From Microbacterium schleiferi (GTDB taxonomy: Bacteria; Actinomycetota; Actinomycetes; Actinomycetales; Microbacteriaceae): a stretch of DNA of 64,000 bases. Positions 5,748-41,208 of the stretch are shown piece after piece. Under the pieces are notes generated by a model. It was not told the DNA's origin and did no database searches. It worked only from the letters and a program-made list of their open reading frames with translations. Made by a program: the position numbers and the translations under genes. The stretch's first letter is position 1. Each line of letters opens with the position of its first letter. The stretch spans positions 1-64,000 of the forward strand of contig NZ_JAJGNI010000007.1 in the NCBI RefSeq assembly GCF_020781975.1. Direction: 5' to 3'.

Positions 5748-5908
5748 TACTACCAGTAGCTACGGCGGTTCCGAGTCATACTCCCGGTCAGTAGCTCCCA
5801 CTCGAGGTGACCCAGTTCCCCGGTTGTGTCCGATGGCGCCGCTAGGTTGAGATCACCTGAGCTCATCAACTTATGTGCGCCCGGTGGCGCAAGGAGAATT
5901 GCGAACCA

Positions 5909-7474: not shown

Positions 7475-8655
7475 GTCGTGTGGATGACTTGATCGCCGAG
7501 CACGCGCCCAACGGCGTGGAGTTCCGCACACTCGGCGACGTCGCGCGATTCGTTCGCGGCAACGGCATGCCCAAGACCGATCTCGTTGATGAAGGCGTCG
7601 GCGCCATCCACTACGGCCAGATCTATACCAGGTACGGCGTCTGGGCGACCGAAACGATCTCATTCGTGGCGCCGGAGACGGCCATGAAGCTTGCGAAGGC
7701 GCAGCCCGGCGACATCATCATCACCAACACCAGCGAGAACGTCGAGGACGTCGGAAAGGCCGTCGCCTGGCTCGGTTCGGAACCGATCGTTACCGGCGGT
7801 CACGCCACGGTGATCCAGCACGACCTCGACCCCAAGTACCTCGCATATTGGTTCCAGTCCGAGTCCTTCTCCTTGCAGAAGCGTGGGCTCGCTACCGGTA
7901 CGAAAGTGATCGACGTTTCGGCGCGCCAGCTGGCGAAGGTGCGACTTCCCGTCCCGCCTATCGAGGTGCAACGGGAGATCGTGGGAATCTTGGATAAGTT
8001 CACCTCGCTGGAAGCGGAGCTGGAAGCGGAGCTGGAAGCGGAGCTGGAAGCGCGGCGACGCCAGTACATCCACTACCGACGCGAACTGCTCGATCTTGGC
8101 GCTGAGACGCCCTTCAGTGCGCTTGGAGACTTGGCTAGGAACCTCGATAGCCGCCGGAAGCCAGTAACCAAAGCCGCGCGAACCTCTGGAGAGATCCCCT
8201 ACTACGGAGCCTCCGGTGTGGTCGACTACGTGAGCGGCTACATCTTCGACGGTGACTATCTGTTGGTTTCCGAGGACGGAGCGAATCTGCTCGCTCGGTC
8301 CACCCCAATCGCCTTCTCAATCAACGGCAAGACCTGGGTCAACAACCACGCGCACGTTCTCGAGTTTGATACGTACGTTGAACGCCGCTTTGTCGAGATC
8401 TACCTCAACTCGATAGATCTGTCTCCCTTCGTCTCCGGTGCCGCCCAGCCCAAGCTGAACAAAGCGAACCTCAATCGGATCCCGGTGCCAAACCCCCCTA
8501 TCGGTGAGAAGCAGCGCATCGTGGCGCTTCTCGACAAGTTCGACGCGCTTGTCAACAACCTGAGCGTGGGACTACCCGCCGAGATCGCTGCCCGCCGCAA
8601 GCAGTACGCCTTCTATCGCGACCAGCTCTTCACCTTTGAGGAGACTGCGGCATGA
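7471..8655 (+). CDS. hsdS: Type I restriction-modification system, specificity subunit HsdS
   Basis: 394 aa. Reads the bipartite DNA target for HsdM and HsdR. Two target-recognition domains are visible: residues about 15-165 and about 205-345, each followed by a conserved helix (IEVQREIVGILDKFTSLE and IGEKQRIVALLDKFDALV). The first spacer helix contains a tandem Leu-Glu-Ala-Glu repeat encoded by a 12-bp DNA repeat, which sets the distance between the two half-sites. The start is GTG overlapping the hsdM stop by four bases; the stop overlaps the hsdR start in the same way. Confidence 0.97.
   Translation: MSRVDDLIAEHAPNGVEFRTLGDVARFVRGNGMPKTDLVDEGVGAIHYGQIYTRYGVWATETISFVAPETAMKLAKAQPGDIIITNTSENVEDVGKAVAWLGSEPIVTGGHATVIQHDLDPKYLAYWFQSESFSLQKRGLATGTKVIDVSARQLAKVRLPVPPIEVQREIVGILDKFTSLEAELEAELEAELEARRRQYIHYRRELLDLGAETPFSALGDLARNLDSRRKPVTKAARTSGEIPYYGASGVVDYVSGYIFDGDYLLVSEDGANLLARSTPIAFSINGKTWVNNHAHVLEFDTYVERRFVEIYLNSIDLSPFVSGAAQPKLNKANLNRIPVPNPPIGEKQRIVALLDKFDALVNNLSVGLPAEIAARRKQYAFYRDQLFTFEETAA
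8008..8055 (+). repeat. 12-bp tandem repeat in the hsdS spacer helix
   Basis: Three perfect copies of CTGGAAGCGGAG and a fourth that ends in CGG, encoding LEAE-LEAE-LEAE-LEAR. It lies exactly between the two target-recognition domains. In-frame 12-bp units of this type are known in EcoR124-type HsdS (TAEL repeats), where gain or loss of a unit changes the spacer length of the recognised sequence. Confidence 0.95.
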
Positions 8656-11600
8656 GTGAAGCCCTGCCTCGCAAGTACGACCCGATCGCAGTCTCGGCCG
8701 AGTCCACGGTCGTCGCGGAGTACGTTCCAGACGCCCACGCGTCGGCCGCATACCAGTCAGAGTCCGCACTTGAGCAGGAACTGATCCGACTCCTGGAGTC
8801 CCAGGCATACGAGTACCTGCCGGTTACATCTGAGGCGCAGCTCGTGGCAAACCTGCGCACCCAGCTCGAGTCGTTGAACCACATGACCTTCTCCGACGCA
8901 GAGTGGACGGACTTCTTCGACTCCAAGATCGCGGGCAAGAACGACGGCATCGTCGAGAAGACCGTGCGCATGCAGGAGGACCACGTCCAGCTCCTGAAGC
9001 GGGACGACGGTTCGACGAAGAACATCGCTCTGCTGGACAAGCAGAACATTCACAACAACCGGCTACAGGTCATCAACCAGTACGAGATCGGTCAGGGCGA
9101 GGGTGGCGCGAACTACGCGAACCGCTACGACGTCACGGTCTTGGTCAACGGGCTGCCGATGGTGCACATCGAGCTCAAGCGTCGTGGTGTTGACATCCGT
9201 GAGGCGTTCAATCAGATCAACCGCTACCAGCGCGACAGCTTCTGGGCCGGCTCTGGTCTGTTCGAGTACGTGCAGCTGTTCGTGATCAGCAACGGAACGC
9301 TGACGAAGTACTACTCGAACACCACCCGTACCCAGCACATCAGTGAGGGCAAGAAGCAGGCCAAGGGCCGGAAGACCTCGAACTCGTTCGAGTTCACGTC
9401 ATGGTGGGCGGACGCGCAGAACAAGCCGATCACGGACCTGACTTCATTCGCGAAGACGTTCTTCGCCAAGCACACGCTGCTGAACATTCTCACCCGCTAC
9501 TGCGTGCTCACCGCAGATCGGCTACTGCTGGTGATGCGCCCGTATCAGATCGTTGCGACCGAGCGGTTACTGCAGCGCATCGACATCGCCACGAACTACA
9601 AGCAGCTCGGCACCGTTGCCGCGGGAGGCTACGTCTGGCACACGACCGGTTCGGGCAAGACGCTGACGAGCTTCAAGACGGCGCAGCTGGCATCGAAGCT
9701 GCCAAGCGTCGACAAGGTGCTGTTCGTCGTGGACCGCAAGGACCTCGATTACCAGACGATGCGCGAGTACGACCGCTTCGAGAAGGGCGCGGCGAACTCC
9801 AACACGTCAACGGCGGTTCTGAAGAAGCAGCTCGAGGACTCGAACGCGCGGATCATCATCACCACGATCCAGAAGCTGTCGACGTTCATAAAGGCCAACA
9901 AGGGCCATACGGTCACGAACGACCACGTCGTGATCATCTTTGACGAGTGCCACCGTTCGCAGTTCGGTGACATGCACACGGACATCACCCGCGCGTTCAA
10001 GCGCTACAACCTTTTCGGCTTCACAGGTACCCCGATCTTCGCGGTCAACGCCGGCACAGGCGGCAACCCGCAGCTCAAGACCACCGAGCAAGCCTTCGGC
10101 GAGAAGCTCCACACCTACACGATCGTCGACGCGATCACCGACAAGAACGTGCTGCCGTTCCGCATCGACTACGTCAACACCGTCAAGGTCGGCACCATCG
10201 TCGACAAGCAGGTGTCGGCCATCGACACCGAGAAGGCGCTGCTCGCGCCGGAGCGCATCAGTCAGGTCGTGCAGTACACGCTCGAGCATTTCGACCAGAA
10301 GACCAAGCGTTCCTCGAGCTACGAGCACTCCGTCGTGACGAACGTCGCCGAGTCGACACGTGCGCGCCGACAGGCCGAAGCCGTCCGCGAGCGCAAGCGG
10401 GTGCGCGGATTCAACGCCATCTTCGCGACGGCCTCGATCGATGCGGCGCGTCGCTACTACAACCACTTCCAGATCCAGCAGGAGGCACTGCCTGCCGAAC
10501 GCCGCCTGAAGATCGGCCTGATCTACTCCTACGGCGCGAACGATGCCAGCGACGACGGGATTCTCGACGACGAGGCCTTCGACACCGATGCGCTGAGTAC
10601 GGACGCGCGCGGCTTCCTCGAGGATGCGATCCAGGACTACAACGACATCTTCGGCACGAGCTACGACACCAGCGCGGACAAGTTCCAGAACTACTACAAG
10701 GACCTCTCGCAGCGACTCAAGAACCGGGAGCTCGATCTCGTCATCGTGGTCACCATGTTCCTCACTGGCTTCGACGCGACGACCCTGAACACGCTCTTCG
10801 TCGACAAGAACCTGCGCGCGCACGGCCTGATCCAGGCGTACTCGCGCACCAACCGCATCCTCAACTCGGTCAAGACGTACGGCAACATCGTCGCCTTCCG
10901 TGACCTCGAAGAAGAGACCAACGCCGCCCTCGAACTGTTCGGCAACAAGGACGCCCGCGGCGTCGTGCTCCTTAAGCCGTACGGCGACTACTACGGCGAG
11001 TACGCAGAGAAGGTCAACGAGCTGCTGACTTCGTTCCCACTCGGGCAGCAGATCATCGGCGAAGCTGCGCAGAAGGAGTTCATCCAGCTGTTCGGACAGG
11101 TCCTGCGGCTTGAGAACATCCTCACCTCGTTCGATGACTTCGCCGGGAACGAGATCCTCACGGAGAGGCAAGGGCAGGACTACCGCAGCGTTTACCTCGA
11201 TCTGTACGCCGAATTCCGCAAGGACAAGGACGCCGATAAGGAACTCATCAACGATGACGTCGTGTTCGAGATCGAGCTGATCAAGCAGGTCGAGATCAAC
11301 GTCGACTACATCCTGATGCTCGTCCAGAAGTACCGCAGCCAGCACGGCGACGGTGAGGACAAGGAGATCCGCGCCGAGATTTCGCGTGCCGTCGACGCCA
11401 GCCCGACCCTGCGCAACAAGAAGGATCTCATCGAAGCCTTCGTCGACTCCGTCTCGGTTGACGGCGCTATCGACGAGGAGTGGCAGGCCTTCATCGCTGC
11501 CAAGCGCGAGGCCGAACTAGAAGCGATCATCGAGGACGAGCGACTCCGCGCCGACGCCACTCGCGCATTCATCGAGATCGCGTTCCGCGACGGAGCGCTC

Positions 11601-11753
11601 CGCACGACTGGAACGGCGATCACCAAGGTGCTTCCGCCTGCTTCCCGGTTCTCTGCCGATGGCGGCCACGGAGAGAAGAAGCAGCGCGTCATCGAGAAGC
11701 TCGGAACCTTCTTTGAGCGGTTCTTCGGGCTGAGTGGTGGAGGCGGATCGTGA
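8652..11753 (+). CDS. hsdR: Type I restriction endonuclease subunit HsdR
   Basis: 1033 aa, full length for the family. The N-terminal 250 residues hold the HsdR nuclease domain (PD-(D/E)XK type; the strand MVHIELKRRGVD carries the E-x-K pair). The SF2 translocase follows: Walker A TTGSGKT near residue 331, DEAD-like box DECH near residue 431, motif III FTGTP, and motif VI region QAYSRTNRI. HsdR translocates DNA and cuts unmodified DNA when bound to HsdM/HsdS. The ATG overlaps the hsdS stop, and the TGA stop overlaps the GTG of the downstream CD-NTase, so restriction and the next defence module are translationally linked. Confidence 0.97.
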   Translation: MSEALPRKYDPIAVSAESTVVAEYVPDAHASAAYQSESALEQELIRLLESQAYEYLPVTSEAQLVANLRTQLESLNHMTFSDAEWTDFFDSKIAGKNDGIVEKTVRMQEDHVQLLKRDDGSTKNIALLDKQNIHNNRLQVINQYEIGQGEGGANYANRYDVTVLVNGLPMVHIELKRRGVDIREAFNQINRYQRDSFWAGSGLFEYVQLFVISNGTLTKYYSNTTRTQHISEGKKQAKGRKTSNSFEFTSWWADAQNKPITDLTSFAKTFFAKHTLLNILTRYCVLTADRLLLVMRPYQIVATERLLQRIDIATNYKQLGTVAAGGYVWHTTGSGKTLTSFKTAQLASKLPSVDKVLFVVDRKDLDYQTMREYDRFEKGAANSNTSTAVLKKQLEDSNARIIITTIQKLSTFIKANKGHTVTNDHVVIIFDECHRSQFGDMHTDITRAFKRYNLFGFTGTPIFAVNAGTGGNPQLKTTEQAFGEKLHTYTIVDAITDKNVLPFRIDYVNTVKVGTIVDKQVSAIDTEKALLAPERISQVVQYTLEHFDQKTKRSSSYEHSVVTNVAESTRARRQAEAVRERKRVRGFNAIFATASIDAARRYYNHFQIQQEALPAERRLKIGLIYSYGANDASDDGILDDEAFDTDALSTDARGFLEDAIQDYNDIFGTSYDTSADKFQNYYKDLSQRLKNRELDLVIVVTMFLTGFDATTLNTLFVDKNLRAHGLIQAYSRTNRILNSVKTYGNIVAFRDLEEETNAALELFGNKDARGVVLLKPYGDYYGEYAEKVNELLTSFPLGQQIIGEAAQKEFIQLFGQVLRLENILTSFDDFAGNEILTERQGQDYRSVYLDLYAEFRKDKDADKELINDDVVFEIELIKQVEINVDYILMLVQKYRSQHGDGEDKEIRAEISRAVDASPTLRNKKDLIEAFVDSVSVDGAIDEEWQAFIAAKREAELEAIIEDERLRADATRAFIEIAFRDGALRTTGTAITKVLPPASRFSADGGHGEKKQRVIEKLGTFFERFFGLSGGGGS

Positions 11754-12577
11754 GCACGACCGCCAGTGCGTGGATGTCAGAGTTGACCACCTACTACACG
11801 CCCACAGCATCACAGTTCGACGGTGCCAAGAGCCACAAGGACTCGATCGAGACCCGCCTCGACAACACTCTTGGTGTCTATCGCATGTTTGAGATCGGAT
11901 CGTTGCGGCACGGCACGGGCGTATGGCACTACAGCGACGCCGACTACCTGGTGTCACTGAAGGGAATCCAACCCTCGTCGCCGTGGACCATGCTGACCAA
12001 AGCGAAGGAATCGCTTCAGGCCCGCTTCCCATCGACCTCTATAACCATCCGCCAGCCTGCAGTCGTCTGCAACTTCTCCGACGGTGTCGTCGAGGTAGTA
12101 CCTGGCTACATTGCCGCCGGCGGCGGGTACATGATCGCGAACCCCTCTGGCGGATGGATGAAGAGCTTCCCCGAGGACCACAACAAGTACGTCAACGAGA
12201 TCAATTCGAAGCACAGCGGTGGCGCGAAGAAGTTAGCTCGCCACCTGAAGATCTGGAAATACAAGCGAAGCGTGCCAGTCTCCTCGTGCTACCTGGAGAT
12301 GAAGGCGGCGAAACACCTCAGTGACGAGACTAGCTACAACCCGATCATCGATCTCTACTACGCACTCAAGCACCTGCAGACAGTGCAACTCGCGTCGATG
12401 AACGACCCCACCGGCCTCGGGTCGCGCTTCGGCTCATGTTCGTCTGACGCGACGAAGAAGGATGCGCTGTCCAAGCTCGACACGGCCGTTGGCCGTGCGA
12501 AGAAGGCCATGGATTATTACGTGGCGAACGACGACGAGAACGCAATCACGCAGTTGAAGCTGCTGTTCAACAGGTAA
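11750..12577 (+). CDS. CD-NTase/SMODS-type nucleotidyltransferase (first copy)
   Basis: 275 aa. Residues about 48-66 carry the nucleotidyltransferase signature: Gly-Ser in FEIGSLRHGTG, then Asp-x-Asp in HYSDADYLVSL, with a third acidic residue in VVEVVPGY (Glu where Asp is more usual). This is the CD-NTase (SMODS) catalytic core, which makes cyclic di- or oligonucleotide signals in CBASS defence. The C-terminal half fits the helical OAS-like domain (KKLARHLKIWKYKR). The GTG start overlaps the hsdR stop by four bases, so it is translated from the restriction operon. Six bases downstream begins a four-TM effector. Product nucleotide cannot be predicted. Confidence 0.88.
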   Translation: MSTTASAWMSELTTYYTPTASQFDGAKSHKDSIETRLDNTLGVYRMFEIGSLRHGTGVWHYSDADYLVSLKGIQPSSPWTMLTKAKESLQARFPSTSITIRQPAVVCNFSDGVVEVVPGYIAAGGGYMIANPSGGWMKSFPEDHNKYVNEINSKHSGGAKKLARHLKIWKYKRSVPVSSCYLEMKAAKHLSDETSYNPIIDLYYALKHLQTVQLASMNDPTGLGSRFGSCSSDATKKDALSKLDTAVGRAKKAMDYYVANDDENAITQLKLLFNR

Positions 12578-12582
12578 ATCCC

Positions 12583-13494
12583 ATGGCAGAGCACGCCGAA
12601 TACGAAGCCCCCGCCAGCGCCGAGATGGCGGCCCGTCAGAATAGCGACGATGCACTTCGCCTGCTCCTTGCTCAGCGACGGCTCCACTCGCGGGCCAAGA
12701 AATGGCAGAGCTTCCGCTGGATCGGCCTGGTTCTTCTCGGTGTTGCTGCGCCGTTCGTCTCGGTACTCATTCCCGGCTCGGCGGTCGCGGTCGGTGCGGT
12801 GACGGGACTCTGGCTTTTTGTCGGCCGAACTGTGCTCGCTTGGTTTGAAACGCGCAGCATGACACGGGCGGCCGCGATTCAGGAGTTGCTCGACCTCTAC
12901 ATCTTTAAGATGCCGGCGACCATCGAACGCACTTCAGTACCAAGCCTCGAGGACATCGCCGTCCTGGCGGCGGCGCCAGGCGGCCTACGAGCTACGGCCA
13001 ATAAGGAGAAGCTCCTAGACTGGTACCCGATCGCCGCAGATCACCCCGGTAGCGAAACTGTCGCGATAGCTCAGCGAGCGAACGCCTCTTACACCGGGCG
13101 ACTGATCCGTACGGCGGTCTGGGTTTGGGCGGGACTAACGCTAGCCTGGCTCGTCTTCCTCACCATCTGGAGCTCCGTCAGCGCGCTCAGCTTCGGTGCC
13201 ATCCTCCTGGGAGTCATCTTCCCGGTTCTGCCTGCTGCCCTCGACGTCGTCGAGTACCTGCTCAGCACATGGCGGGCAGCCCAGGACAGGGAAGATCTTG
13301 CCAACACAATCCAGTCGCGCATCGAAGGCGACGCCCCGATTCTTGGGCAAGAGCTCGTCGCCTGGCAGGTGCAGATGTATGACCTCCGACGGACCACACC
13401 GCAGGCTCCTGATTGGCTCTACAACCTGACTCGCAGTAGGAACGAAGCCGCGATGCACGCGGCTGCGGACGAACTCCGGAGAAAGAAGCAGTGA
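12583..13494 (+). CDS. SMODS-associated four-TM (S-4TM family) putative pore-forming effector
   Basis: 303 aa with four hydrophobic segments in two hairpins: about residues 46-64 and 67-88, then 176-196 and 203-226. The segments are separated by a roughly 85-residue cytoplasmic region and followed by a charged 75-residue tail. Length and topology match the S-4TM effectors encoded beside SMODS nucleotidyltransferases, thought to damage the inner membrane when the cyclic nucleotide is made. It sits between two CD-NTase genes, six bases after one and overlapping the other by four bases. This position, more than sequence alone, supports the effector role. No lipase, nuclease or protease motif is present. 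Confidence 0.85.
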   Translation: MAEHAEYEAPASAEMAARQNSDDALRLLLAQRRLHSRAKKWQSFRWIGLVLLGVAAPFVSVLIPGSAVAVGAVTGLWLFVGRTVLAWFETRSMTRAAAIQELLDLYIFKMPATIERTSVPSLEDIAVLAAAPGGLRATANKEKLLDWYPIAADHPGSETVAIAQRANASYTGRLIRTAVWVWAGLTLAWLVFLTIWSSVSALSFGAILLGVIFPVLPAALDVVEYLLSTWRAAQDREDLANTIQSRIEGDAPILGQELVAWQVQMYDLRRTTPQAPDWLYNLTRSRNEAAMHAAADELRRKKQ

Positions 13495-14363
13495 CCGTCA
13501 CGACCGCGCAGGCCTTCAGCAAGTTTCTTGAGGACATCACCGCCACCGATCACCAGAAGTCGACTTTCATCCCCAACCGGAAGGCATCCGTCGACACAGA
13601 CCTGACGAAGGCTTTCCCGTCTACCTCTGACATGCCCTACTGGAAGGGCATCCTCATGGGATCTGCGTCGAAGGGCACCATCATCCGCCCGCTGGACGAC
13701 ATCGATTTACTTGCTGTTTTCTCAAACGAGAATGGCGCGTGGAGCAAGTACGCCTACGACTCGAAGAGCTTCATCTATCGAGTCAGGAACGCGTACGACG
13801 GCTTCAAGACGCAGCAGGTCGGCACCCGCGGTCAAGCAGTCCGCGTGTTCTATCAGTCCGGAGGCCACGTCGATGTCGCACCCGTGTTCCACCAGGGCAA
13901 CGACATCTATCACCTCCCAAATGGCACCGGTGGTTGGCTACTCACCGCGCCGACCGTCGCGAACTCCTGGTACTTCGAGAAGAATAGGGCGCTTGGTTAT
14001 CACCTCAGCCCCGTTGTGCGCCTCCTAAAGGCTTGGAATCGGGCTCATTCCAAGCACTTCCGTTCCTTCCATCTAGAAACTGTCGCGGCCACGACATTCG
14101 GCTCGCTCGGTAGCAACTACCGAGAAGCCCTGCAGAAGTTTTTTGAGTGGGCGCCGAGCTATCTCAGCGTGAGCGATCCTGGCGGCCAGGGCGGCGACCT
14201 GAGCACCTACCTCACGTCGAGCGGACGGCAGGAACTGCTCAACGCGCTGAGCGCTGCTGCTGACCGCGCGAAGCGAGCCAACGAGGCGGAAGGCCGGGGC
14301 GATCACGCGGAAGCGAAGCGGCTCTGGCGAATCGTCCTTGGCAGCGCGTTCCCCGTTTCTTAG
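13491..14363 (+). CDS. CD-NTase/SMODS-type nucleotidyltransferase (second copy)
   Basis: 290 aa. Catalytic motifs are complete: Gly-Ser in MGSASKGTIIRP near residue 57, Asp-x-Asp in LDDIDLLAVF near residue 69, and the third Asp in GGHVDVAPVF near residue 126. The helical domain contains the typical LLKAWNRAHSKHFRSFHLE segment. It is clearly different in sequence from the upstream CD-NTase, so it is not a recent duplicate. GTG start overlapping the effector stop by four bases; last gene of the six-gene operon. It may make a second signal, or form a hetero-complex with the first enzyme. Confidence 0.88.
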   Translation: MTVTTAQAFSKFLEDITATDHQKSTFIPNRKASVDTDLTKAFPSTSDMPYWKGILMGSASKGTIIRPLDDIDLLAVFSNENGAWSKYAYDSKSFIYRVRNAYDGFKTQQVGTRGQAVRVFYQSGGHVDVAPVFHQGNDIYHLPNGTGGWLLTAPTVANSWYFEKNRALGYHLSPVVRLLKAWNRAHSKHFRSFHLETVAATTFGSLGSNYREALQKFFEWAPSYLSVSDPGGQGGDLSTYLTSSGRQELLNALSAAADRAKRANEAEGRGDHAEAKRLWRIVLGSAFPVS

Positions 14364-14393: not shown

Positions 14394-15806
14394 CTATGCC
14401 CTCGAAGCCGACGGTTTGTTGTCGTTACGGGCGTCGATGACCACGATTGATTCCTCGCCGGCAAGCTTCAGCTCGCCGAGGATGCGATCCACCTTCGCCT
14501 GTTGTTCGGCGGTGTAGCAGACGATGACCTTGACGGACTTGCGCACCCCGTTGGCCTTCTCGTAAATCGCAACCTGATTCTCGAGATTGCGCTTGAGCTG
14601 GCTGTTGCTCGCGAGTTTGAACTCGATCAGAGACTTGTCGAACGCGCCCTTGCTGACCTTGAAGTCGACGGGGCCACGACCGTTGTTCACCTCTCGATTC
14701 ACATCGAACTCGGTCCGGTACCAGATCAGGCCGAAGAAGATCTGGACATCCGTTTCCCGCGAGAACGGGCGGTCGCGTCGGTTAATCACCAGGTAGCCGT
14801 CGTTGTTCTCGATGTAGTCCTTGAATGCCTTCGCGCGGACGAGCGACTCCTCATAGCTGCCGAGAGGCAGTTCGTAGAGGTTGCTGCCCTGCTCGATCGC
14901 GGGGATCGCCTCACGGACTTGCTCCACAAGCGCGTCGTAGACCTCGCGCCGACGGTCGGCGCTAAGGGCCTCGGCGTGATCGCCGTTCTCTTCCTGGCGG
15001 CGGATGTAGTAGTCGACCAGCTCCGGGAACTTCCAGATCGTGTCCTGCGCCGCCTGCGCGTACTCCTTGGGCGACGGACGCTCGCTCAGCCGTGAGCGGA
15101 AGTAGCTGTCGATCTGACCGCGCATCTGATCATCGTCGATCGCATCGGGGAGATGAGGGAAGCTGTGGATCATGTCGCCGTGGTTGATCCAGGTGTCGTC
15201 GCTCGTGAGGATGTCAAACGGCGTCAACAGAACGAAGTCACTGCCGAGCTTCGGCAAGTAGTAGCGCTTTGTCTTCCACGCCTTGGTGGCGTAGTCGAAC
15301 TCAGCTCGGGTCACGGCGAATGTCGCACAGTCCTCGGGCTCGAGGTGCTGTTGCGCGAACGTCTGTGTGTACTGGAGGAGATAGTCCTTGATGAGGTTGG
15401 TCGTGAAGTCGCTGATGTTGTCACGGCCCACCCCCTTGCCAATGAGCGCCAGCTTCTCTAGGTGTGGACTCTGTGTGATCAACTCGTCGCCGAAGTTGCT
15501 GAAGATTGATCCAAGGGCGCGGTGAAGTTCGCGCGCGAACTTCGGGCCAAGGCCACTCCCGCCGTTGCCAAGGACCGTGAACCCGAGCCAGTTCTGCTTG
15601 ACCTCCTTGAAGGAGTACAGGTTCTTTATAACCGCGTCATCCAGGTTGGGGTCGGCCTCGTCCCGGAGGAACTTGAGGTACTTGATGATGCTCTCGTGGA
15701 GTTCCTGGTACTCGGGCTTGTCGCTGTGGAACAGCAGGAAGGGGTCGATGAAGACAGGCAGGTCCGAGACGACACTCACGTTGAAAGCGCCATACTCTTC
15801 GAGCAC
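14394..15806 (-). CDS. Hypothetical protein with PD-(D/E)XK-like C-terminal domain
   Basis: 470 aa from GTG 15806, convergent with the CBASS-like operon 30 bp away. Residues about 365-425 show a PD-(D/E)XK-type core: an Asp in GPVDFKVSKG and an E-x-K in SLIEFKLASN, followed by a helix QLKRNLENQVAIYEKA. The N-terminal 340 residues are unrecognised. The reading frame stays open and protein-like for 17 codons upstream (ELYFSDQFNVAPD) to a stop at 15858-15860. No ATG, GTG or TTG occurs there, only ATA at 15846-15848, where a Met would fit. The true start is therefore uncertain. Likely a nuclease-type accessory gene of the defence island. Confidence 0.6.
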   Translation of the reverse strand: MLEEYGAFNVSVVSDLPVFIDPFLLFHSDKPEYQELHESIIKYLKFLRDEADPNLDDAVIKNLYSFKEVKQNWLGFTVLGNGGSGLGPKFARELHRALGSIFSNFGDELITQSPHLEKLALIGKGVGRDNISDFTTNLIKDYLLQYTQTFAQQHLEPEDCATFAVTRAEFDYATKAWKTKRYYLPKLGSDFVLLTPFDILTSDDTWINHGDMIHSFPHLPDAIDDDQMRGQIDSYFRSRLSERPSPKEYAQAAQDTIWKFPELVDYYIRRQEENGDHAEALSADRRREVYDALVEQVREAIPAIEQGSNLYELPLGSYEESLVRAKAFKDYIENNDGYLVINRRDRPFSRETDVQIFFGLIWYRTEFDVNREVNNGRGPVDFKVSKGAFDKSLIEFKLASNSQLKRNLENQVAIYEKANGVRKSVKVIVCYTAEQQAKVDRILGELKLAGEESIVVIDARNDNKPSASRA

Positions 15807-23889: not shown

Positions 23890-23979
23890 GAACCCGAGGT
23901 GAGCCAGAACCGCACCCGGTCGGACGCCCCACGGCAGACCCGGCTTCCACCGTTAGCCTTTCAACAGAGGAGGAGCGAG

Positions 23980-24795
23980 ATGACTGACCAGGAGGGGTTT
24001 CGGCCGAGTGGCCAGCAGGCCAGAACCGGCAAATGCACCCTCTGCGGGAGCCGAGCCAAGCTCACCCAAGCTCACGTGCCGCCGAAGGCAGCCTTCAACC
24101 GGGGAAGCTTCGCTTGGGGCGGCACAACGGCGGATAACCGCCTCGCCTACGGACGACCGAGGCTCGGGGGCGCGAGCCGGTACGCGCACTGTGAGGCTTG
24201 CCGTGCAAGCACGTCGCCTTGGGATGACGAGTACATCAGGTGGGCGCACTGTTTCGCCGGCCACTTGCTCCACTCGCATTGGAAGGGCCAGCGGACCCAC
24301 ATCACCGGCGAACTTACCGACGTGCGTCCCGGCAGATTCATCCGCGCAACGATCGCGGGCATGACGGCCCTGACTCCAAACCTCATCGACTCGCACGCTG
24401 ATCTTGTTCGTATCGTGCGCGAAGGCATCCCAGCCCAACCGCCCGAAGGTATGAGGTTCCTGGCAGCCATCGCGCCGGACAGAAGCCCGGCCCATGTAGA
24501 GGGCAGCCACGAGGCGCTGGTTGTCCGCATGTCACAAGACAGCGATAGCGGTGAGTGGGCGACCGCGACTACACCGGCGGCATCGGCAGTGATTCACTTC
24601 GCTCCTTTCAGCCTGCTGCTTGCAGAGCGACAGCTCGTTGACTCTTTCCCTCACGTCGACTGCACCGAGTGGTTGCAGCTCGGAGTGGATGACATCGCCA
24701 ATGTGCGGATTGCCCTCCCGATAGTCGACCTTCCTAGGACACCAACTGCGCCGGTGCCCATTGCGATGCTTCAGTTCATGGAGGCCCGCGCATGA
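23980..24795 (+). CDS. HNH-like zinc-binding protein, cargo gene in the conjugation operon
   Basis: 271 aa on the strand opposite to the conjugation genes. The N-terminus has CTLCGSRAKLTQAHVPPKAAF followed by HCEACRAS, i.e. C-x2-C, a His in an A-H-V-P-P-K motif, and C-x2-C. This is the treble-clef layout of HNH-type nucleases of the E-H-V-P-P-K kind. The remaining 200 residues are unrecognised. ATG 23980 follows AGAGGAGGAG, an excellent ribosome site. The 3' end overlaps the convergent VirB4-like gene by 25 bases. Independent expression inside a transfer operon suggests a cargo (defence or addiction) gene. Confidence 0.65.
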   Translation: MTDQEGFRPSGQQARTGKCTLCGSRAKLTQAHVPPKAAFNRGSFAWGGTTADNRLAYGRPRLGGASRYAHCEACRASTSPWDDEYIRWAHCFAGHLLHSHWKGQRTHITGELTDVRPGRFIRATIAGMTALTPNLIDSHADLVRIVREGIPAQPPEGMRFLAAIAPDRSPAHVEGSHEALVVRMSQDSDSGEWATATTPAASAVIHFAPFSLLLAERQLVDSFPHVDCTEWLQLGVDDIANVRIALPIVDLPRTPTAPVPIAMLQFMEARA

Positions 24796-26784: not shown

Positions 26785-27575
26785 TCAGAGCGACAGCCCG
26801 CGGGCCTGCTTGACCGCGGCAACGCCGGGATGCTCGAACCAGCCCCCGTCACGGACGGCGCTGCGTCGAGCTGCCGTCTCGCGACCGGCGGTGTTGCGGG
26901 TCGGCGGGACGTGCGCCGTGGTGGGCGGGTCGATGGCGTCTTCGGCGGGGATCAGGTGCCGCCGGTAGAGGGCGACGTGCCCGGCCTGGAGGTTGTAGGT
27001 CATGGCGTAGTCGCCGGTCTCGGCCTGCCGGTCTCCGGGATAGACGGGGGCGGTGTCGTGGACATCCCCGTTCTCGAAGGCGGCGTTGGTGGTCTCGTCG
27101 CCGTAGTCCCACATGGACAGATGCTCGATGCCCGCCTCGTCGCCGCCTCGGTCGATGAGGTCGAGAGTCTGGTCGGCTTCCTCGCCTTGGAGGAACACGA
27201 CGCCGATCCACCGCTCGACACGTCGGTCCTGCGGGTTCCAGACGATCCGGCCTGACTGGTTGAAGGCGGTGCCGAGGCGGTCGTCGGCCTGGTCGATGAG
27301 GGCGCCGCCTGGTGTAGCTCGTCGGCGGCCGCCAGCGCCGCGGCCGCGCCGGCGGCGTGGTCGCGGGCGTCGTCGGTGACGTGGTGCTGACGGGTCAGGT
27401 GGGCGGTGGCGAGCTGGTCGAGCACCTGCCGCAGCGATCGCAGCCCGCCCAGCAGGTCGCCGATCACGGCGTAGGTGTCGGCCGGGTTCTCGAAGGTGCG
27501 GGTGGCGTGCGCGAGCCCGTGCAACGCCTCGTAGGCTTCGCGGGCATCGGTGATGGGATTCGTGAACGTCGGCAT
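26785..27575 (-). pseudogene. Conjugative-element hypothetical gene(s) broken by a 1-base frameshift
   Basis: The frame from ATG 27575 (MPTFTNPITDAREAYEALHG, with a GGAGG site) reads as good protein to about 27310 (ALAAADELHQAA). The protein-like reading then continues in another frame as ALIDQADDRLGTAFNQSGRI ... RWIGVVFLQGEEADQTLDLI down to a stop at 26785. The junction reads GCGGCGCCCTC; one more G would restore the frame. So either one gene has lost a base, or the first gene is frameshifted into the second. The downstream part from ATG 27198 (137 aa) could still be made alone. Sequencing error is the main alternative. Confidence 0.6.
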
Positions 27576-27654
27576 GACGGCCTCCATGACTTTGGTGTCC
27601 GCCAGGTGCGCGTCGCCCGGTCCACTGTCCGTCGCCCTCCGTAGGCTGGTAGCC

Positions 27655-28515
27655 ATGTCCTATGTCGCTACGGTGTTGCGCGTGATGATCGCCTCGCCCT
27701 CAGATGTGACCGAGGCTCGCGACGCCGTTGAGAAGGCGGTGCACGGCTGGAATGATGCGAACGCTAGGAATAAGGGCGTGATCCTGCAGCCGTGGCGATG
27801 GGAGACATCAGCAGTCCCTGTCATGGGAGCTCATCCGCAGAAGCTCATCAATGCGCAGGGCGTCGATGATTCCGACATCGTGTTCGCGCTGTTCGGCGGA
27901 CGGCTCGGTTCACCGACGCCTGACGCCATCTCGGGAACTGCCGAGGAAGTGGATCGGGCGCTTGAGCTGGGCAAGCCTGTCCATCTGTACTTCTCGACCG
28001 CCCCGCTGCCGAACGACATCGATACTGCGCAGCTCGACGCCCTCCGTGCCTTCAAGAAGGATATGCAAGACCGCGGTCTCCTGGGCGAGTTCAACAACTC
28101 CGAGCAGCTCAATCACGAGGTCTGGAAAGCGATCGAGCATGACATCGTCGCCCTGAAACTGGACTCGATACCCGCCGCGCAGTCGCAGCCAAGCGGAGTG
28201 GACTTCTTGGTTCAGCCCCATCAAGAGCGTGAAGTCTCGGGAGTGAACTCGAAGGGTGCTCCGCGCTACACGACGAAGCACTGGCTCGACATCACAAACA
28301 CTGGCGATCGCGACGCGGAAGGCGTGGCGTTCGAGAGCGTCGGCGAGGACAGCGCCATGTTCATCGCTGGTCCGGAAGGTCCCACAACGATCCACCGTGG
28401 CCAGACCCGGCGACTGCCTGTGATGTTCACCTTCGGAGGGTCGGGCGACCCGGTTCTTCGCATTCAATGGGCCGAAGATGATGAAGACAAGCATCGAGAC
28501 TTCCACGTTGGGTAG
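27655..28515 (+). CDS. DUF4062-like protein, cargo gene in the conjugation operon
   Basis: 286 aa, opposite strand to the transfer genes on both sides. Residues 1-155 resemble DUF4062-type Rossmann domains seen at the N-terminus of signalling and NTPase proteins: VLRVMIASPSDVTEARDAVE, then VPVMGAHPQKLIN, then DDSDIVFALFGGRLGSPTPD and GTAEEVDRALELGKPVHLYF. Residues about 190-286 form a separate beta-rich domain (HWLDITNTGDRDAEGVAF). ATG 27655 is chosen because homologous-looking sequence begins there. With the HNH-like gene at 23980 it is one of two reversed insertions in the operon, both likely cargo. A TIR/SLOG-like sensing role is possible but unproven. Confidence 0.6.
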   Translation: MSYVATVLRVMIASPSDVTEARDAVEKAVHGWNDANARNKGVILQPWRWETSAVPVMGAHPQKLINAQGVDDSDIVFALFGGRLGSPTPDAISGTAEEVDRALELGKPVHLYFSTAPLPNDIDTAQLDALRAFKKDMQDRGLLGEFNNSEQLNHEVWKAIEHDIVALKLDSIPAAQSQPSGVDFLVQPHQEREVSGVNSKGAPRYTTKHWLDITNTGDRDAEGVAFESVGEDSAMFIAGPEGPTTIHRGQTRRLPVMFTFGGSGDPVLRIQWAEDDEDKHRDFHVG

Positions 28516-28525
28516 CAGCCTGTAG

Positions 28526-29992
28526 CTACACCGTGCGGCACAGCGGCAGCGCGGCCGCCGTGAACGCGACCGCTTGCTGGCCGACGAGCCTGCGGGTCTC
28601 GCAGGAGGCTTGGATCGCGGCTTGTTCGATCGCGGCGACCGCGGCGTCTAGCTCGTCGACGCTGGGGGCGGAGACGGAGATGAGCCCGGAGACTCGCAGA
28701 ATCCCGTGGCCGGCGGTCAGGTCGGCTTCCTGTTGCAGCACGTCCTGGTATTCGGCGGTCTGGGCCGCGTCCGCGATCTGCCCGATCCGGGCGCGCTGGG
28801 CTGCATCCGAGATGTGCTCGACCTTCTTCTTGCGGATGTCGCGGGCCGCCTGGTCCGAGCGCATCGGGGTGTAGATCAGCGACACCGACCGCTGGATACC
28901 GGTGGAGAGCAGCACCGGCGCGAGGAACCCCGGATAGACGAGGCTGCGGGGCCACTCCGAGACCCACAAGACGGTATGCCAGGCGGAGTCGGTGCGCAGG
29001 TTGCCCCAGGTCTCGGTGACCGCGACCGGGCCGGCGGCGGCGAGCTCCTGCCCGAGCCTCCCGTGGCGCTCCAAGGTCGCGGCCACGGCCGGGTCATACG
29101 CCGAGCGCAGGATGACCGCGACCTGGCCGGGACCGAGCCACCCCGAAGGGGTCAAATCCGCCGACCGCAGCGCGGCAACCAGGGTCGCCATCTCCTGCCG
29201 AAGCACCGCGGCCGCACCGCGGATGCCGCCGCCGGCGGTCCTGATCTGTCGAGCCGCGACCTTCATGTCCAGGGAGAGGCTGACCGTGGTGGCGTGCCTT
29301 TCCCCGGCGGGGCCGGCCCGCTCGATCAGCTCGCGGTAGGTGGTCGCGGCCCAGGAGCCGTCGTCGGTGCCGTGCTCGGCCCACCACTCGGCCAGCCCGC
29401 TACCGGAGTCCGGCAGGGTCCGTTCGAGCACTTGCAGGGTCGCGATTCTCCCGGAGCGGCAGACCGTGGCGAGCACCCGTCCCCACGAGGTGATGCGGCG
29501 CTCCTGCTCGCCGGGGTCCAGCAGGATGAATGCCGGATGGGTCACTTCCGTCACGACCGTCAAGGTCGCCTGGCGGGGGTCGTGGATCATGCATGCCCCG
29601 GTCTCGGGGTCCAGGTGCTCCCGCAGCCGGGCCATGTCGCCGGGCAGCGCGAGAGTGCCGGCCGGGCGGGGCTTGACGATCCGGCGCCGGTAGAGCAGTT
29701 GCCCGCCGGTGGAGCGCCACAGCCACCAGAGCGCGACCGGGAGCCATTCGACCATTGGCCTGCCTGCGACCGGCACCCAGGTGAGCACGACGGCGAGCAG
29801 CCAGACCGGGGCGGTGTAGGCCAGCAGCATCCCGGCGCCGCCGTAGAATGCGGCCAACAGCGCCAAGCCGCCGATGCCGAGGGTGACGAGCTGAGAGACC
29901 GAGAGGCCGAGCAGCACCCCGCGGCGGGCGAGCCGGCTGAACTTCATCGGCGTCAGCTCGCTACCGGGTGTCTTCTGTTCCGTGGTGGGCAT
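28526..29992 (-). CDS. SCO6880-family conjugation protein (VirB4 N-terminal-like partner)
   Basis: 488 aa. Two or three N-terminal membrane segments (VTLGIGGLALLAAFYGGAGM and PVWLLAVVLTWVPVAG) resemble the PrgI/VirB3-like part. The rest resembles the N-terminal domain of VirB4 ATPases without Walker motifs (LATVCRSGRIATLQVLERT, LSLDMKVAARQIRTAGG, IRKKKVEHISDAAQRAR). In actinobacterial elements this protein precedes a short VirB4-like ATPase, as here. Start MPTTEQK is chosen over an earlier ATG because it abuts the upstream stop. Inner-membrane component of the transfer channel. Confidence 0.85.
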   Translation of the reverse strand: MPTTEQKTPGSELTPMKFSRLARRGVLLGLSVSQLVTLGIGGLALLAAFYGGAGMLLAYTAPVWLLAVVLTWVPVAGRPMVEWLPVALWWLWRSTGGQLLYRRRIVKPRPAGTLALPGDMARLREHLDPETGACMIHDPRQATLTVVTEVTHPAFILLDPGEQERRITSWGRVLATVCRSGRIATLQVLERTLPDSGSGLAEWWAEHGTDDGSWAATTYRELIERAGPAGERHATTVSLSLDMKVAARQIRTAGGGIRGAAAVLRQEMATLVAALRSADLTPSGWLGPGQVAVILRSAYDPAVAATLERHGRLGQELAAAGPVAVTETWGNLRTDSAWHTVLWVSEWPRSLVYPGFLAPVLLSTGIQRSVSLIYTPMRSDQAARDIRKKKVEHISDAAQRARIGQIADAAQTAEYQDVLQQEADLTAGHGILRVSGLISVSAPSVDELDAAVAAIEQAAIQASCETRRLVGQQAVAFTAAALPLCRTV

Positions 29993-30000
29993 GGCAGGTA

Positions 30001-31335
30001 TCACTCCTTGCCCCACGGCGATGCCGTGGGGTTGGACGGCTCCGTGGGCGTCCGCGGTTGCGGCGTGGACGGCGGCGGCGTCTGCGACGGCGGCGGGGTA
30101 CCGCCGTTCTGCCCGCTCGCGGCGTCCGCGGCGGTCTCGGCCTGACCGGCCAGCGCGTGCCCGGCCTTCGGCCCGGCCTCGGCGGCATCCTTGGCGACCT
30201 TCGCTCCGACCACGACGGCTGCCTCCGGTCCCGCGCCCGCCGCCGAAGCGCCGGCCTCGGCGCCCACGGTTTCACCGCCGGCCACGGCAGGTGCCTGCGC
30301 CGGGGCGGGCGACGGCGGAGGCGTGCCACCTGATCCTGCATCCGACCCGCCGCCATTGGGGTCTTCGAGAACCTTCTTCGGCTCACCGCCGCCCTGGGGC
30401 TTGGACGGGATCGGGACGGGACGGTTGAGCGCGTTCTTCGCCTCCTGCTCGGTCCCCATCTGCTGGTACAGGTCGAAGCCCACGAAGGAGACAAAGCGGT
30501 AGACCATGTACGGCGCAAAGGCCGCGATGCCCATGAGCACGATGCCGGTGATCGGCTCGGTGACCGCGGCGATGTCCAGCTCGATCGGGGTGGCGATCTG
30601 CGTGATCGCCAGCAAGAAGATGACGACGAGCACGAGCTTGCTGATGATGAGCGCGATCACGAACGCCGCCCATTTCCCGATCCACCCTTTGGTCGCGTCC
30701 CAGGACGCGCCAGCGAACGCGATCGGTGCCAGCACCACGCCGACCAGTAGCAGCGCCTTGCGGATCAGCAGGCTGAACCAGACGATCGCGACGGCGGCGA
30801 TCATCAGCCCAGCCAGGAAGATCGTCACGATCGCGCCGACGCCGGGGGCGGCGATGTTGATGCCGGTCAGCCCGGCGGCGAGCAGGATGATCTTGTCGCC
30901 CATCGTCCCGGTGGTCTCGCCGGACGCCTGGATGATGCCGATGCAGAGCTGGTCCACGATTTCCAGCGCGAGTGCCGTCAGCGTGACGACCACGAACGCG
31001 CCCAGCACCGATTTCGCCGCGCCGAGCGCGGCTCTGGACAGCGCGGTCGGGTCTCGGCGTATCAGCCCGGTGATGAGTTGCAGACAGAAGAAGATCAGGA
31101 CGAGGAAGACCCCGATGCCGAAGATCAGGTTGTAGACGCTGGTGAACCCGTCCGTCTGGACATCGACCAGCGTGGTCGTGTCGAACACCGACCACATCGC
31201 CTCGATCAGCCAGCCGGCCGCGCCACCCATCGCCTGGGCGAGCCAGTCGAACGGGGCGGCCACGACCGTCGCAGCGGCCTCGCCGGCCACGTCGCAGACG
31301 GTCGAAATCACGGGAACGTCGCAGACACCCATCAC
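30001..31335 (-). CDS. TrbL/VirB6-like polytopic conjugation protein
   Basis: 444 aa. Six or seven hydrophobic segments lie between residues about 70 and 290 (for example GVFLVLIFFCLQLITGLI, GAIVTIFLAGLMIAAVAIVW, LVLVVIFLLAITQIATPI). They are followed by a long, probably disordered Pro/Ala/Gly-rich cytoplasmic tail from about residue 300. This is the layout of VirB6/TrbL channel proteins. It starts 27 bp after the small pilin-like gene and is followed nine bases later by the SCO6880-like gene. Confidence 0.85.
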   Translation of the reverse strand: MMGVCDVPVISTVCDVAGEAAATVVAAPFDWLAQAMGGAAGWLIEAMWSVFDTTTLVDVQTDGFTSVYNLIFGIGVFLVLIFFCLQLITGLIRRDPTALSRAALGAAKSVLGAFVVVTLTALALEIVDQLCIGIIQASGETTGTMGDKIILLAAGLTGINIAAPGVGAIVTIFLAGLMIAAVAIVWFSLLIRKALLLVGVVLAPIAFAGASWDATKGWIGKWAAFVIALIISKLVLVVIFLLAITQIATPIELDIAAVTEPITGIVLMGIAAFAPYMVYRFVSFVGFDLYQQMGTEQEAKNALNRPVPIPSKPQGGGEPKKVLEDPNGGGSDAGSGGTPPPSPAPAQAPAVAGGETVGAEAGASAAGAGPEAAVVVGAKVAKDAAEAGPKAGHALAGQAETAADAASGQNGGTPPPSQTPPPSTPQPRTPTEPSNPTASPWGKE

Positions 31336-39869: not shown

Positions 39870-41208
39870 GGGTGTGTCCGATTAACGGTGGATCTGGCCG
39901 AGCGCATGGTTAGTCGATTCGGCCTTCGAATGCGATCGCGAACGCATTCAGTGCCGGCTTCCACCTCGTCGCCCAGCGTGCCCTGCCCCTGCCGGTGGGG
40001 TCAAGCGAGCGGGTCACGAGGTAGAGGCACTTCAGCGCCGCAGCGTCGTTGGGGAAGTGCCCGCGCGCCCTCACGGCGCGGCGGTAGCGGGCGTTGAGGG
40101 ACTCGATCGCGTTTGTCGAGCAGATGACCCGGCGGATCTCGACGTCCCAGTCCAGGAACGGCACGAACTCGGACCACGCGTTCTGCCAGAGCTTCGTGAT
40201 CGCTGGATACTGCCCGCCCCACTTCGCGTCGAACTCCTCGAACCGCTCGACCGCGGCAGCCTCGGTCGGGGCGGTATAGACGGGGCGGAGGTCCTTGCCC
40301 ATCTCTTCCCAGTAGTGCCGGGACGCGAACCGGAACGTGTTACGGATCAGATGGATGATGCAGGTCTGCACCGTCGCGAGCGGCCACGCCGTGTTGATCG
40401 ACTCTGGCAGACCCTTGAGGCCGTCGCAGACGACGATGCACACGTCCTCGACGCCGCGGTTCTTGATCTCGGTGAGGACACCGAGCGCCTCACCGCCATC
40501 GCCGGCCCAGATGCCGAGGATGTCGCGTTCCCCGTTCACGGTCACGCCGACGGCGAGATAGAACGGTTTGTTGCGCACCTGCCCGTCCCGGACCTTCACC
40601 ACCAGAGCATCAATGAACACCACAGGATAGACGCGATCCAGCGGACGGTTCTGCCATTCGGTCATCTCCTCGATCACCTTGTCCGTGATCCTCGAGATCG
40701 TGTCCTTGGACACCGACGCCCCGTAGACGTCGTCGAAGTGCGCGGCGACCTCCCCGGTCGTCAGCCCACGCGCGGTGAGCGAGAGCACGATCTCGTCGAC
40801 CCCGGTCAACCGCCGCTGCCGCTTCTTGACGATCTTCGGGTCGAACGACCCGTCCCGGTCCCGAGGAACCTCGATCTGAACGGGACCAACCTCGGTCAGC
40901 ACGGTCTTCGACCTCGTCCCGTTGCGCGCATTCTCGCTGGTCGACACAGCGTGCTTCTCATAGCCGGGGTGCTCGGTCATCTCCGCCTCGAGCGCCGTCT
41001 CCAGCACCCGCTTCGTCAGTCCGTTCAGCAACCCGTCCGGGCCGACGAGGTCGACGCCCCGTTCCTTCGCTTGCTTCAGCAGCTGCTCCGCGAGCTGCTG
41101 CTCGTCGATGATCTCCCCCCGTCACAGGATCGATCATCTCGATGACATCGGTCATCACCCTTCCTTTCGGTCAGGCCCGACCAGATCCACCGTTAGTCAG
41201 ACAGTCCC
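39870..41208 (-). mobile_element. IS256-family insertion sequence, copy 1
   Basis: 1339 bp bounded by imperfect inverted repeats: GGGTGTGTCCGATTAACGG at the transposase 3' side and GGGACTGTCTGACTAACGG at the 5' side, both continuing into TGGATCTGG. No matching 8-bp target duplication: the flanks are GTCCATCA and GTCATGTC. Related to, but not identical with, copy 2 at 47133 and in opposite orientation. Its ends abut the pilin-like gene and the glycosyltransferase stop codon. Confidence 0.9.
39910..41155 (-). pseudogene. IS256-family (mutator) transposase, frameshifted at a G6 run, copy 1
   Basis: The N-terminus (MTDVIEMIDPVTG) is in one frame and the rest from ...LNGLTKRVLETALEAEMTEH in another. 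The switch is at six G residues (CCCCCC at 41115-41120 on the plus strand), where five would keep frame. The downstream frame holds the mutator core: Asp in VVFIDALVVKVRDG, Asp in VVCDGLKGLPES and Glu in CSTNAIESLNARY. Relative to copy 2 it lacks four codons (GDGGEALGV instead of GDGGEGAKFWLGV). Either decayed or expressed by slippage on the G-run. Confidence 0.8.

What the first reader, a model, noticed from the sequence alone, without database searches (positions are those of the whole stretch)
27655..28515. Second reverse-strand cargo gene, DUF4062-like with an extra beta domain
It combines a DUF4062-like Rossmann domain with an unrecognised C-terminal beta domain, and sits between two conserved conjugation genes on the opposite strand. 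DUF4062-type domains occur in signalling and defence proteins. It marks a second cargo site in the element.
Basis: inference. Interest (0 to 1): 0.5.

Follow-up and report, generated by a model that had tools for sequence, protein, structure and literature searches.

The report
Swappable TIR-like defence gene, conjugative element
A single gene tucked backwards between two DNA-transfer genes of a mobile element most likely makes an enzyme that destroys NAD to stop viral infection; it carries an immunoglobulin-like domain that may be its sensor, and it sits in a slot where related elements carry other genes, some of them defence genes, or nothing.

Summary
Window 27655-28515 (+) is an intact 286-aa gene facing against the transfer genes around it. 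Its first half passes Pfam's DUF4062 cut-off. A family profile matches KpSwz, the solved DUF4062 NADase of the Swarozyc anti-phage system (E 6e-4), and puts our E98 on its apparent catalytic position; E98 is invariant in 20 of 20 aligned relatives. The second half is a confident all-beta, immunoglobulin-like sandwich (pLDDT 87.5), unlike KpSwz's winged portal-binding domain. The gap is a real cargo site: of 50 related SCO6880 loci fetched, 29 are empty, 18 filled, 3 undetermined. One of the 18 holds DUF4062, as do the window and three named genomes; others match PD-T7-1, PDC-M09A/B and PDC-S66, or look metabolic. The SCO6880 tree needs at least four changes of the DUF4062 state. Best reading: a one-gene NAD-depleting abortive-infection protein, working like SpbK or Swarozyc, with the Ig-like domain as probable sensor. 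NADase activity, trigger and phage protection are inferred, not shown. New variant of a known kind.

The parts
27655..28515 (+). 286-aa gene: DUF4062 TIR-like domain joined to an Ig-like domain
27655..28164 (+). N-terminal half (aa 1-170), DUF4062; probable catalytic Glu at aa 98 (codon 27946-27948)
   Evidence: Pfam aa 9-102; KpSwz profile match and E98 column; E98 invariant in 20 of 20 rows
28195..28512 (+). C-terminal Ig-like beta sandwich (aa 181-286)
   Evidence: AlphaFold pLDDT 87.5, pTM 0.76 for aa 171-286; structure searches
28526..30016 (-). SCO6880-family transfer protein, right border of the cargo slot
   Evidence: NF042935 E 2e-139; used to find 50 related loci
27000..27575 (-). 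small core gene, left border of the slot (the mechanical ORF runs to 27656)
   Evidence: homology in relatives mostly begins at ORF residue 27-28
27576..28525 (.). cargo slot: holds the DUF4062 gene here; about 50 nt in the nearest relatives
   Evidence: 29 empty, 18 filled, 3 undetermined of 50 loci; junctions; tree

Best explanation
The gene encodes a one-protein anti-phage effector. The N-terminal DUF4062 domain is a TIR-like NAD+ hydrolase, held inactive until the C-terminal Ig-like domain binds something made by an invader (a phage structural protein such as the portal is the best guess). Binding clusters the proteins, the TIR-like domains become active through Glu98, NAD+ falls, and the infected cell stops before phage is released. 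The gene rides as exchangeable cargo in a fixed slot, facing against the transfer operon right after the SCO6880 stop codon of an actinobacterial conjugative element. Shown here: domain identity, a conserved Glu at the catalytic position, an Ig-like fold for the second domain, and a slot with empty, DUF4062 and other states. Inferred: NADase activity, autoinhibition, trigger, phage protection.
For: Pfam DUF4062 above cut-off; profile match to KpSwz, E 5.9e-4; E98 invariant in 20 of 20 rows and readable by eye in 7 of 7 further relatives; DUF4062 NADases defend by NAD+ depletion (PMC13174449); the C-domain is less conserved than the N-domain in 9 of 9 pairs and replaced by other stretches in relatives of other phyla, as expected of a sensor; the slot elsewhere holds matches to PD-T7-1, PDC-M09A/B, PDC-S66; relatives elsewhere lie beside GajA/GajB, PDC-M23A/B, dCTPase, RmrA; PADLOC candidate family PDC-S60 matches aa 7-184.
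Against: No activity was measured. The single-sequence match to KpSwz is weak (E 0.19), and the N-domain model is poor, with homoserine dehydrogenase and Ras-like folds scoring about as high as TIR domains. Some slot fillings look metabolic or metal-related, so the slot alone does not prove defence. In the preprint three of four purified human DUF4062 proteins showed no NADase activity. The neighbours sent to PADLOC were picked by eye, and 1 of 10 random control genes also hit. No phage record encodes a close relative or points to a trigger.
Confidence: 0.62

Rival explanations
1. Same NAD-depleting mechanism, but the trigger is a competing mobile element (proteins of an incoming plasmid or conjugative element), so the gene serves exclusion between elements rather than phage defence.
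For: The gene lies inside a conjugative element and relatives lie on plasmids; no close relative in phage records.
Against: The described DUF4062 and SpbK effectors respond to phage portals (PMC13174449, PMC11984713); nothing here identifies a trigger.
Confidence: 0.13
2. The DUF4062 domain makes a nucleotide signal (cyclic ADP-ribose type, as in Thoeris) for a separate effector.
For: TIR domains can do either (told in PMC13174449); the domain keeps the catalytic-type Glu.
Against: Inserted as a single gene in the window, L002, L003, L004 and L073, with core genes on both sides.
Confidence: 0.08
3. A nucleotide-processing or nucleotide-binding protein of the wider superfamily (2-deoxyribosyltransferase-like) with a household or regulatory role for the element.
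For: Weak Nuc_deoxyrib_tr match (E 0.062; 10 of 20 relatives at E up to 1).
Against: DUF4062 scores far better; patchy presence, 17 of 299 genomes of the family, and an exchangeable slot do not suit a household role.
Confidence: 0.08
4. An addiction gene: a toxic NADase that stabilises the element.
For: NADases are toxic when active (PMC13174449); in L028 and L130 a YfbU-like gene sits beside the DUF4062 gene.
Against: No such partner gene in the slot of the window, L002, L003, L004 or L073.
Confidence: 0.05

Closest known systems
Swarozyc (KpSwz), DUF4062 TIR-like NADase (PMC13174449, preprint, May 2026)
   Same: DUF4062 domain first, auxiliary domain second; conserved Glu in the same column; found near defence genes
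   Different: KpSwz has helical stalks and a winged/HTH auxiliary domain that binds the portal; here an Ig-like sandwich follows a short linker. Only a profile match, E 5.9e-4
SpbK of ICEBs1 (PMC11984713)
   Same: Single TIR NADase gene with a separate sensing part, carried by an integrative conjugative element
   Different: Classical TIR at the C-terminus, sensing part at the N-terminus; no sequence comparison was made here
PADLOC candidate PDC-S60
   Same: Our aa 7-184 match its first 187 positions, E 6e-25
   Different: The model is 906 positions long; the rest does not match
TEP1, NWD1, NPHP3 (eukaryotic DUF4062 proteins, as told in PMC13174449)
   Same: DUF4062 domain
   Different: NACHT ATPase beside DUF4062; our protein has no Pfam match to a NACHT domain

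Membership tests
DUF4062 (PF13271) | Score above Pfam's curated cut-off | tested here: met
   30.1 bits against 24.7; 17 of 20 relatives match at E up to 1
DUF4062 TIR-like NADase | Conserved catalytic Glu | tested here: met
   E98 aligns with the column of KpSwz E97 (the deposited chain shows Ala there, taken to be the E97A mutant, inference); invariant in 20 of 20 rows
DUF4062 TIR-like NADase | TIR-like fold | tested here: inconclusive
   Poor N-domain model; TIR domains among the best rows but not set apart from other Rossmann-like folds
DUF4062 TIR-like NADase | NAD+ hydrolysis | not testable with these tools
   Needs an assay
Swarozyc of KpSwz type | Winged/HTH auxiliary domain | tested here: not met
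   C-domain is predicted all-beta with pLDDT 87.5 and no helix
Swarozyc of KpSwz type | Activation by a phage portal | not testable with these tools
   Needs phage and protein assays
Cargo site of a conjugative element | Same core flanks with empty and differently filled states | tested here: met
   29 empty, 18 filled, 3 undetermined of 50 loci; junctions
Immunoglobulin-like domain | Ig-like beta sandwich | tested here: met
   Fold level only: alpha-2-macroglobulin domain Z 8.3, rmsd 2.7, 93 aligned; AP2 alpha ear Z 8.2, rmsd 3.0, 91 aligned; Pfam Ig-like hits only sub-threshold in single relatives

The most novel reading that the evidence does not exclude
An actinobacterial branch of DUF4062 NADases senses its trigger with an Ig-like domain, a recognition module different from KpSwz's winged portal-binding domain, and the gap behind SCO6880 is a standing docking slot into which conjugative elements repeatedly swap single defence genes, some of which also move between sites of one element.
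Probability: 0.4. Interest if true: 0.62.

Novelty: new variant of a known kind. Interest (0 to 1): 0.5.

Why it matters
It suggests a second, Ig-like sensing solution for a newly described NADase family that is also present in the human vault protein TEP1, in a one-gene system that is easy to test. The slot is also a practical place to look for new defence genes: reading the SCO6880 gap gave matches to PD-T7-1, PDC-M09A/B and PDC-S66 models and opposite-strand genes with no Pfam or PADLOC match, such as those in L069 and L071.

Tried and rejected
Two scans of viral contigs found no relative; a third, with the broad alignment, could not run because no stretch was conserved enough. The phage records gave no match at E 0.01. 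NCBIfam gave no family for the protein. Pfam on 10 cargo proteins of this slot and of the window's other site matched none of 10. A search for the C-domain apart from DUF4062 found, in 394 genomes of the class, five DUF4062 proteins and one short protein (L129) that seems to start with a membrane helix, and in plasmids three places in DUF4062 genes or remnants; no swap to another effector was seen. Foldseek on the full model ranked EF-Tu and lumazine synthase high; rejected, because the superpositions are poor (rmsd 8-20 A) and the N-domain model is weak. KpSwz does not appear in the structural lists; the library ends in April 2026, so this says nothing. The way cargo enters is open: no terminal repeats stand out by eye in the junctions, but no repeat search was run; homologous recombination through the core flanks is the simplest guess. 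The promoter/terminator scan found one promoter-like site, which lies inside the gene, and no terminator; nothing was built on it. An alignment of two window pieces was uninformative. dN/dS is usable only for the closest pair; the other pairs are near saturation.

Results against the reading, and rows dropped: L083 and L110 count as filled by length (597 and 505 nt) but show no convincing separate cargo ORF. L081 (399 nt) was counted as empty because its gap holds a same-strand ORF that begins like the left core gene. L111 was too short for the tree, which therefore has 53 of 54 rows. The clustering of the DUF4062 state on the tree is no tighter than many shuffles (36 of 500 as low), as expected for cargo that moves.

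Papers: PMC13174449 was read as abstract, parts 1-3 of 6 and figure legends; its supplement, with the domain architectures (S1D, S1E), was not seen, so an Ig-like auxiliary domain may already be shown there; the terms 'immunoglobulin' and 'Ig-like' do not occur in its main text. PMC11984713: abstract and passages. PMC2782261, the one paper that holds 'SCO6880': search listing only. PD-T7-1, Gabija and Thoeris as defence systems are recalled beyond PADLOC's labels and PMC11984713's mention of Thoeris. A search for 'DUF4062' found 9 papers; 'Swarozyc' found 0 although PMC13174449 uses the name, probably because of an accented letter. No search was made that could show this slot to be undescribed, apart, none of whose listings named it.

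Full report
What is there. The finding names window 27655-28515. It is a complete gene on the plus strand (ATG 27655, stop 28515, 286 aa). It is 'reverse' only relative to the transfer genes, which run on the minus strand. To its right, with 10 nt between the two stop codons, lies an SCO6880-family protein (28526-30016; NF042935, E 2e-139), followed by an SCO6881-like protein (below that model's cut-off). To its left is a small core gene (ORF 27000-27656). In relatives its homology mostly starts at residue 27-28, so the true start is probably near 27575 and about 79 nt separate the two divergent genes. Further left are a VirB4-like ATPase (below the models' cut-offs), a VirD4-like coupling protein (Pfam T4SS-DNA_transf and TraG-D_C above cut-off) and a tyrosine recombinase. 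The gene is poorer in G+C than the blocks beside it (0.61-0.63 against 0.69-0.74).

The N-terminal domain. Pfam's DUF4062 matches aa 9-102 above its cut-off. A preprint of May 2026 (PMC13174449; parts 1-3 of 6 and figure legends read) reports that DUF4062 is a TIR-like NADase family, that the Klebsiella protein KpSwz ('Swarozyc') defends against phages by NAD+ depletion, that its E97 is catalytic, and that its auxiliary domain binds the phage portal. It also reports no activity for three of four human DUF4062 proteins tested. The direct match of our protein to the KpSwz chain is weak (E 0.19). A profile of 20 sequences reaches it at E 5.9e-4 over profile positions 67-197. In both alignments our E98 stands on an Ala of the deposited chain; as the preprint's structures use E97A, this is most simply the catalytic position (inference). 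E98 is one of nine columns invariant in all 20 rows, and the same Glu can be read in 7 of 7 further relatives from a cyanobacterium, Bacillota, Pseudomonadota and Streptomyces (by eye). The AlphaFold model from eight sequences is poor in this half. Re-aligned with PDB chains, plant TIR domains (RRS1: Z 10.8, rmsd 3.6, 133 aligned; L6: Z 9.7, rmsd 4.7, 141 aligned) and Cat1 (Z 9.4, rmsd 3.1, 125 aligned) are near the top, but homoserine dehydrogenase (Z 10.7) and Ras-like folds (Z 8-10) score about as high. The fold is consistent with TIR, not proven by this.

The C-terminal domain. Predicted alone (aa 171-286) it is confident: mean pLDDT 87.5, pTM 0.76, eight strands, no helix. Structure comparison returns immunoglobulin-like sandwiches: an alpha-2-macroglobulin domain (Z 8.3, rmsd 2.7, 93 aligned), the AP2 alpha ear (Z 8.2, rmsd 3.0, 91 aligned), major sperm protein (Z 7.3, rmsd 2.7, 82 aligned) (Foldseek's best E is 7e-3). 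Such values mark a common arrangement and name no family. By sequence, Pfam gives only sub-threshold Ig-like hits in single relatives. This is not KpSwz's winged/HTH domain. It is less conserved than the N-domain in 9 of 9 pairs with the window protein (for example 0.39 against 0.74 identity to L008). Seven relatives of other groups keep the N-domain but differ after it; by eye only the Streptomyces one looks Ig-like and one is cut short. This is what one expects of an effector with exchangeable sensors. I found no case of this C-domain on another known effector.

The slot. I located SCO6880 genes in 299 genomes of the window's family (48 with a match at E 1e-30, the window's own included), took 50 of the 68 listed places other than the window (18 weak or fragmentary places left out), and measured the distance from the SCO6880 stop to the next core gene. 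In 28 it is at most 157 nt, and one more (L081, 399 nt) holds only an ORF that begins like the left core gene: 29 empty. In 18 it is 505 nt or more: filled, although L083 and L110 show no convincing cargo ORF. In 3 no next core gene was found in the stretch. The nearest relatives of the window's element, with SCO6880 97% and 96% identical, are empty (48 and 47 nt; L062, L063). A DUF4062 gene of the same family fills the gap in one of the 18 (L073, 64% identity) and, among named genomes, in Microbacterium sorbitolivorans (L002, 96%), Actinomyces provencensis (L003, 80%) and a Propionicimonas MAG (L004, 80%). Junctions place the insert directly after the SCO6880 stop and just before a GCGC(TC)ACCTGGC stretch that the window shares with the empty L062 and L063. 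On the SCO6880 tree (quick method, 53 rows) the DUF4062 state needs at least 4 changes for 5 rows. The sharpest pair is L073 and L076: SCO6880 97% identical, one carrying DUF4062, the other the two-gene candidate PDC-M09A/B. Other fillings: a PD-T7-1 match in L093 (E 7e-159), a PDC-S66 match in L078 (E 4e-9), a relative of the window's other cargo gene (23902-24795) in L066 (two adjacent pieces, 63% and 73%), and, judged by eye from the ORF starts only, glyoxalase-like genes, ArsR with cation efflux, and MerR with an MFS transporter. So not everything there is defence. Most cargo ORFs face against the operon, as here; in L076, L099, L100 and L102 they run with it. In G141 (L010) the DUF4062 gene lies in the same kind of element but at another site, between the relatives of window 31760 and 31363. 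Thus one slot takes different genes, and one gene family uses different slots.

Other neighbourhoods. Relatives outside this element lie within about 80-360 nt of GajB (L008, with GajA and PDC-S65 beyond), PDC-M23A with M23B beyond (L131), dCTPase (L134) and RmrA (L132, which has two DUF4062 genes). Those of L132 and L134 are distant (about 30% identity). Of the ORFs sent to PADLOC at E 1e-3, 6 of 10 hit, 5 of 10 and 4 of 10; several hits are weak. These ORFs were chosen by eye, so the rates are biased upward. In a control of 10 ORFs drawn at random from two stretches of the window's own contig, 1 of 10 hit, a Ser/Thr-kinase-like protein that matches many generic models. PMC13174449 reports that over half of bacterial DUF4062 genes neighbour a defence homologue. 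The family is patchy: 17 of 299 genomes of the window's family and 14 of 394 of its class have a match at the thresholds used, the window's own genome included.

Mechanism. Shown: domain make-up, conserved Glu at the catalytic position, purifying selection against the closest relative (dN/dS 0.02 in the N-domain, 0.12 in the C-domain), slot dynamics. Inferred from family knowledge: NAD+ hydrolysis, activation by clustering, abortive infection. Guess: a phage portal or other structural protein as trigger. A close functional parallel is SpbK, a TIR NADase carried by the Bacillus element ICEBs1 and switched on by a phage portal (PMC11984713, abstract and passages). Such a gene would protect the element together with its host.

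Verdict. The protein is a DUF4062 member. It is not a KpSwz-type Swarozyc, because the auxiliary domain differs, but it probably works like one. It is a new variant of a known kind in a recurrently refilled cargo slot.

Noticed in passing
window 5873-14363 (+): Type I restriction-modification genes (MTase, specificity, REase) directly followed by two CD-NTase cyclases around a 4TM effector, a CBASS-like set with two cyclases. Lies in the lower-G+C part left of the integrase gene.
   Followed up: no
window 14394-15806 (-): Protein with a partial PADLOC match to candidate PDC-M36A (E 1e-17).
   Followed up: no
window 23902-24795 (+): The element's other opposite-strand cargo gene, between the VirD4-like and VirB4-like genes. 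No Pfam or PADLOC match; its relative sits in the DUF4062 slot of L066, so cargo is shared between sites.
   Followed up: partly
L132 5611-7854: Two different DUF4062 genes with beta-type tails, convergent, with an RmrA-like gene 78 nt from one of them.
   Followed up: partly
L028 11227-11997 and L130 4392-5174: YfbU-like proteins (34% identical to each other) beside the DUF4062 gene in two unrelated contexts; a possible partner absent from the window.
   Followed up: partly
L130 9418-10437: A second protein whose start reads like a canonical DUF4062 domain, about 3 kb from the DUF4062/Ig-like gene (by eye; no PADLOC match).
   Followed up: no
L029 8001-9709; L009 3891-4332; L140 4001-4573: Broken copies: split by a transposase gene (Rothia plasmid), interrupted reading frame (Actinomadura), short copy ending before an IS3 transposase, next to phage terminase genes (Salmonella plasmid record).
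   Followed up: no
L071 1504-2772 and L075 4793-6076: Slot cargo ORFs of 422 and 427 aa that look related by eye and have no PADLOC match; possibly an undescribed cargo family.
   Followed up: no
plasmids collection, Enterococcus records: 154 Enterococcus plasmid records match the protein; the Enterococcus rows seen match only parts of its first 183 residues at 30-37% identity.
   Followed up: no
window 39910-41031 (-): Mutator-family transposase (E 7e-124); a 66% identical relative lies about 6.5 kb from the DUF4062 gene in Actinomadura L006.
   Followed up: no
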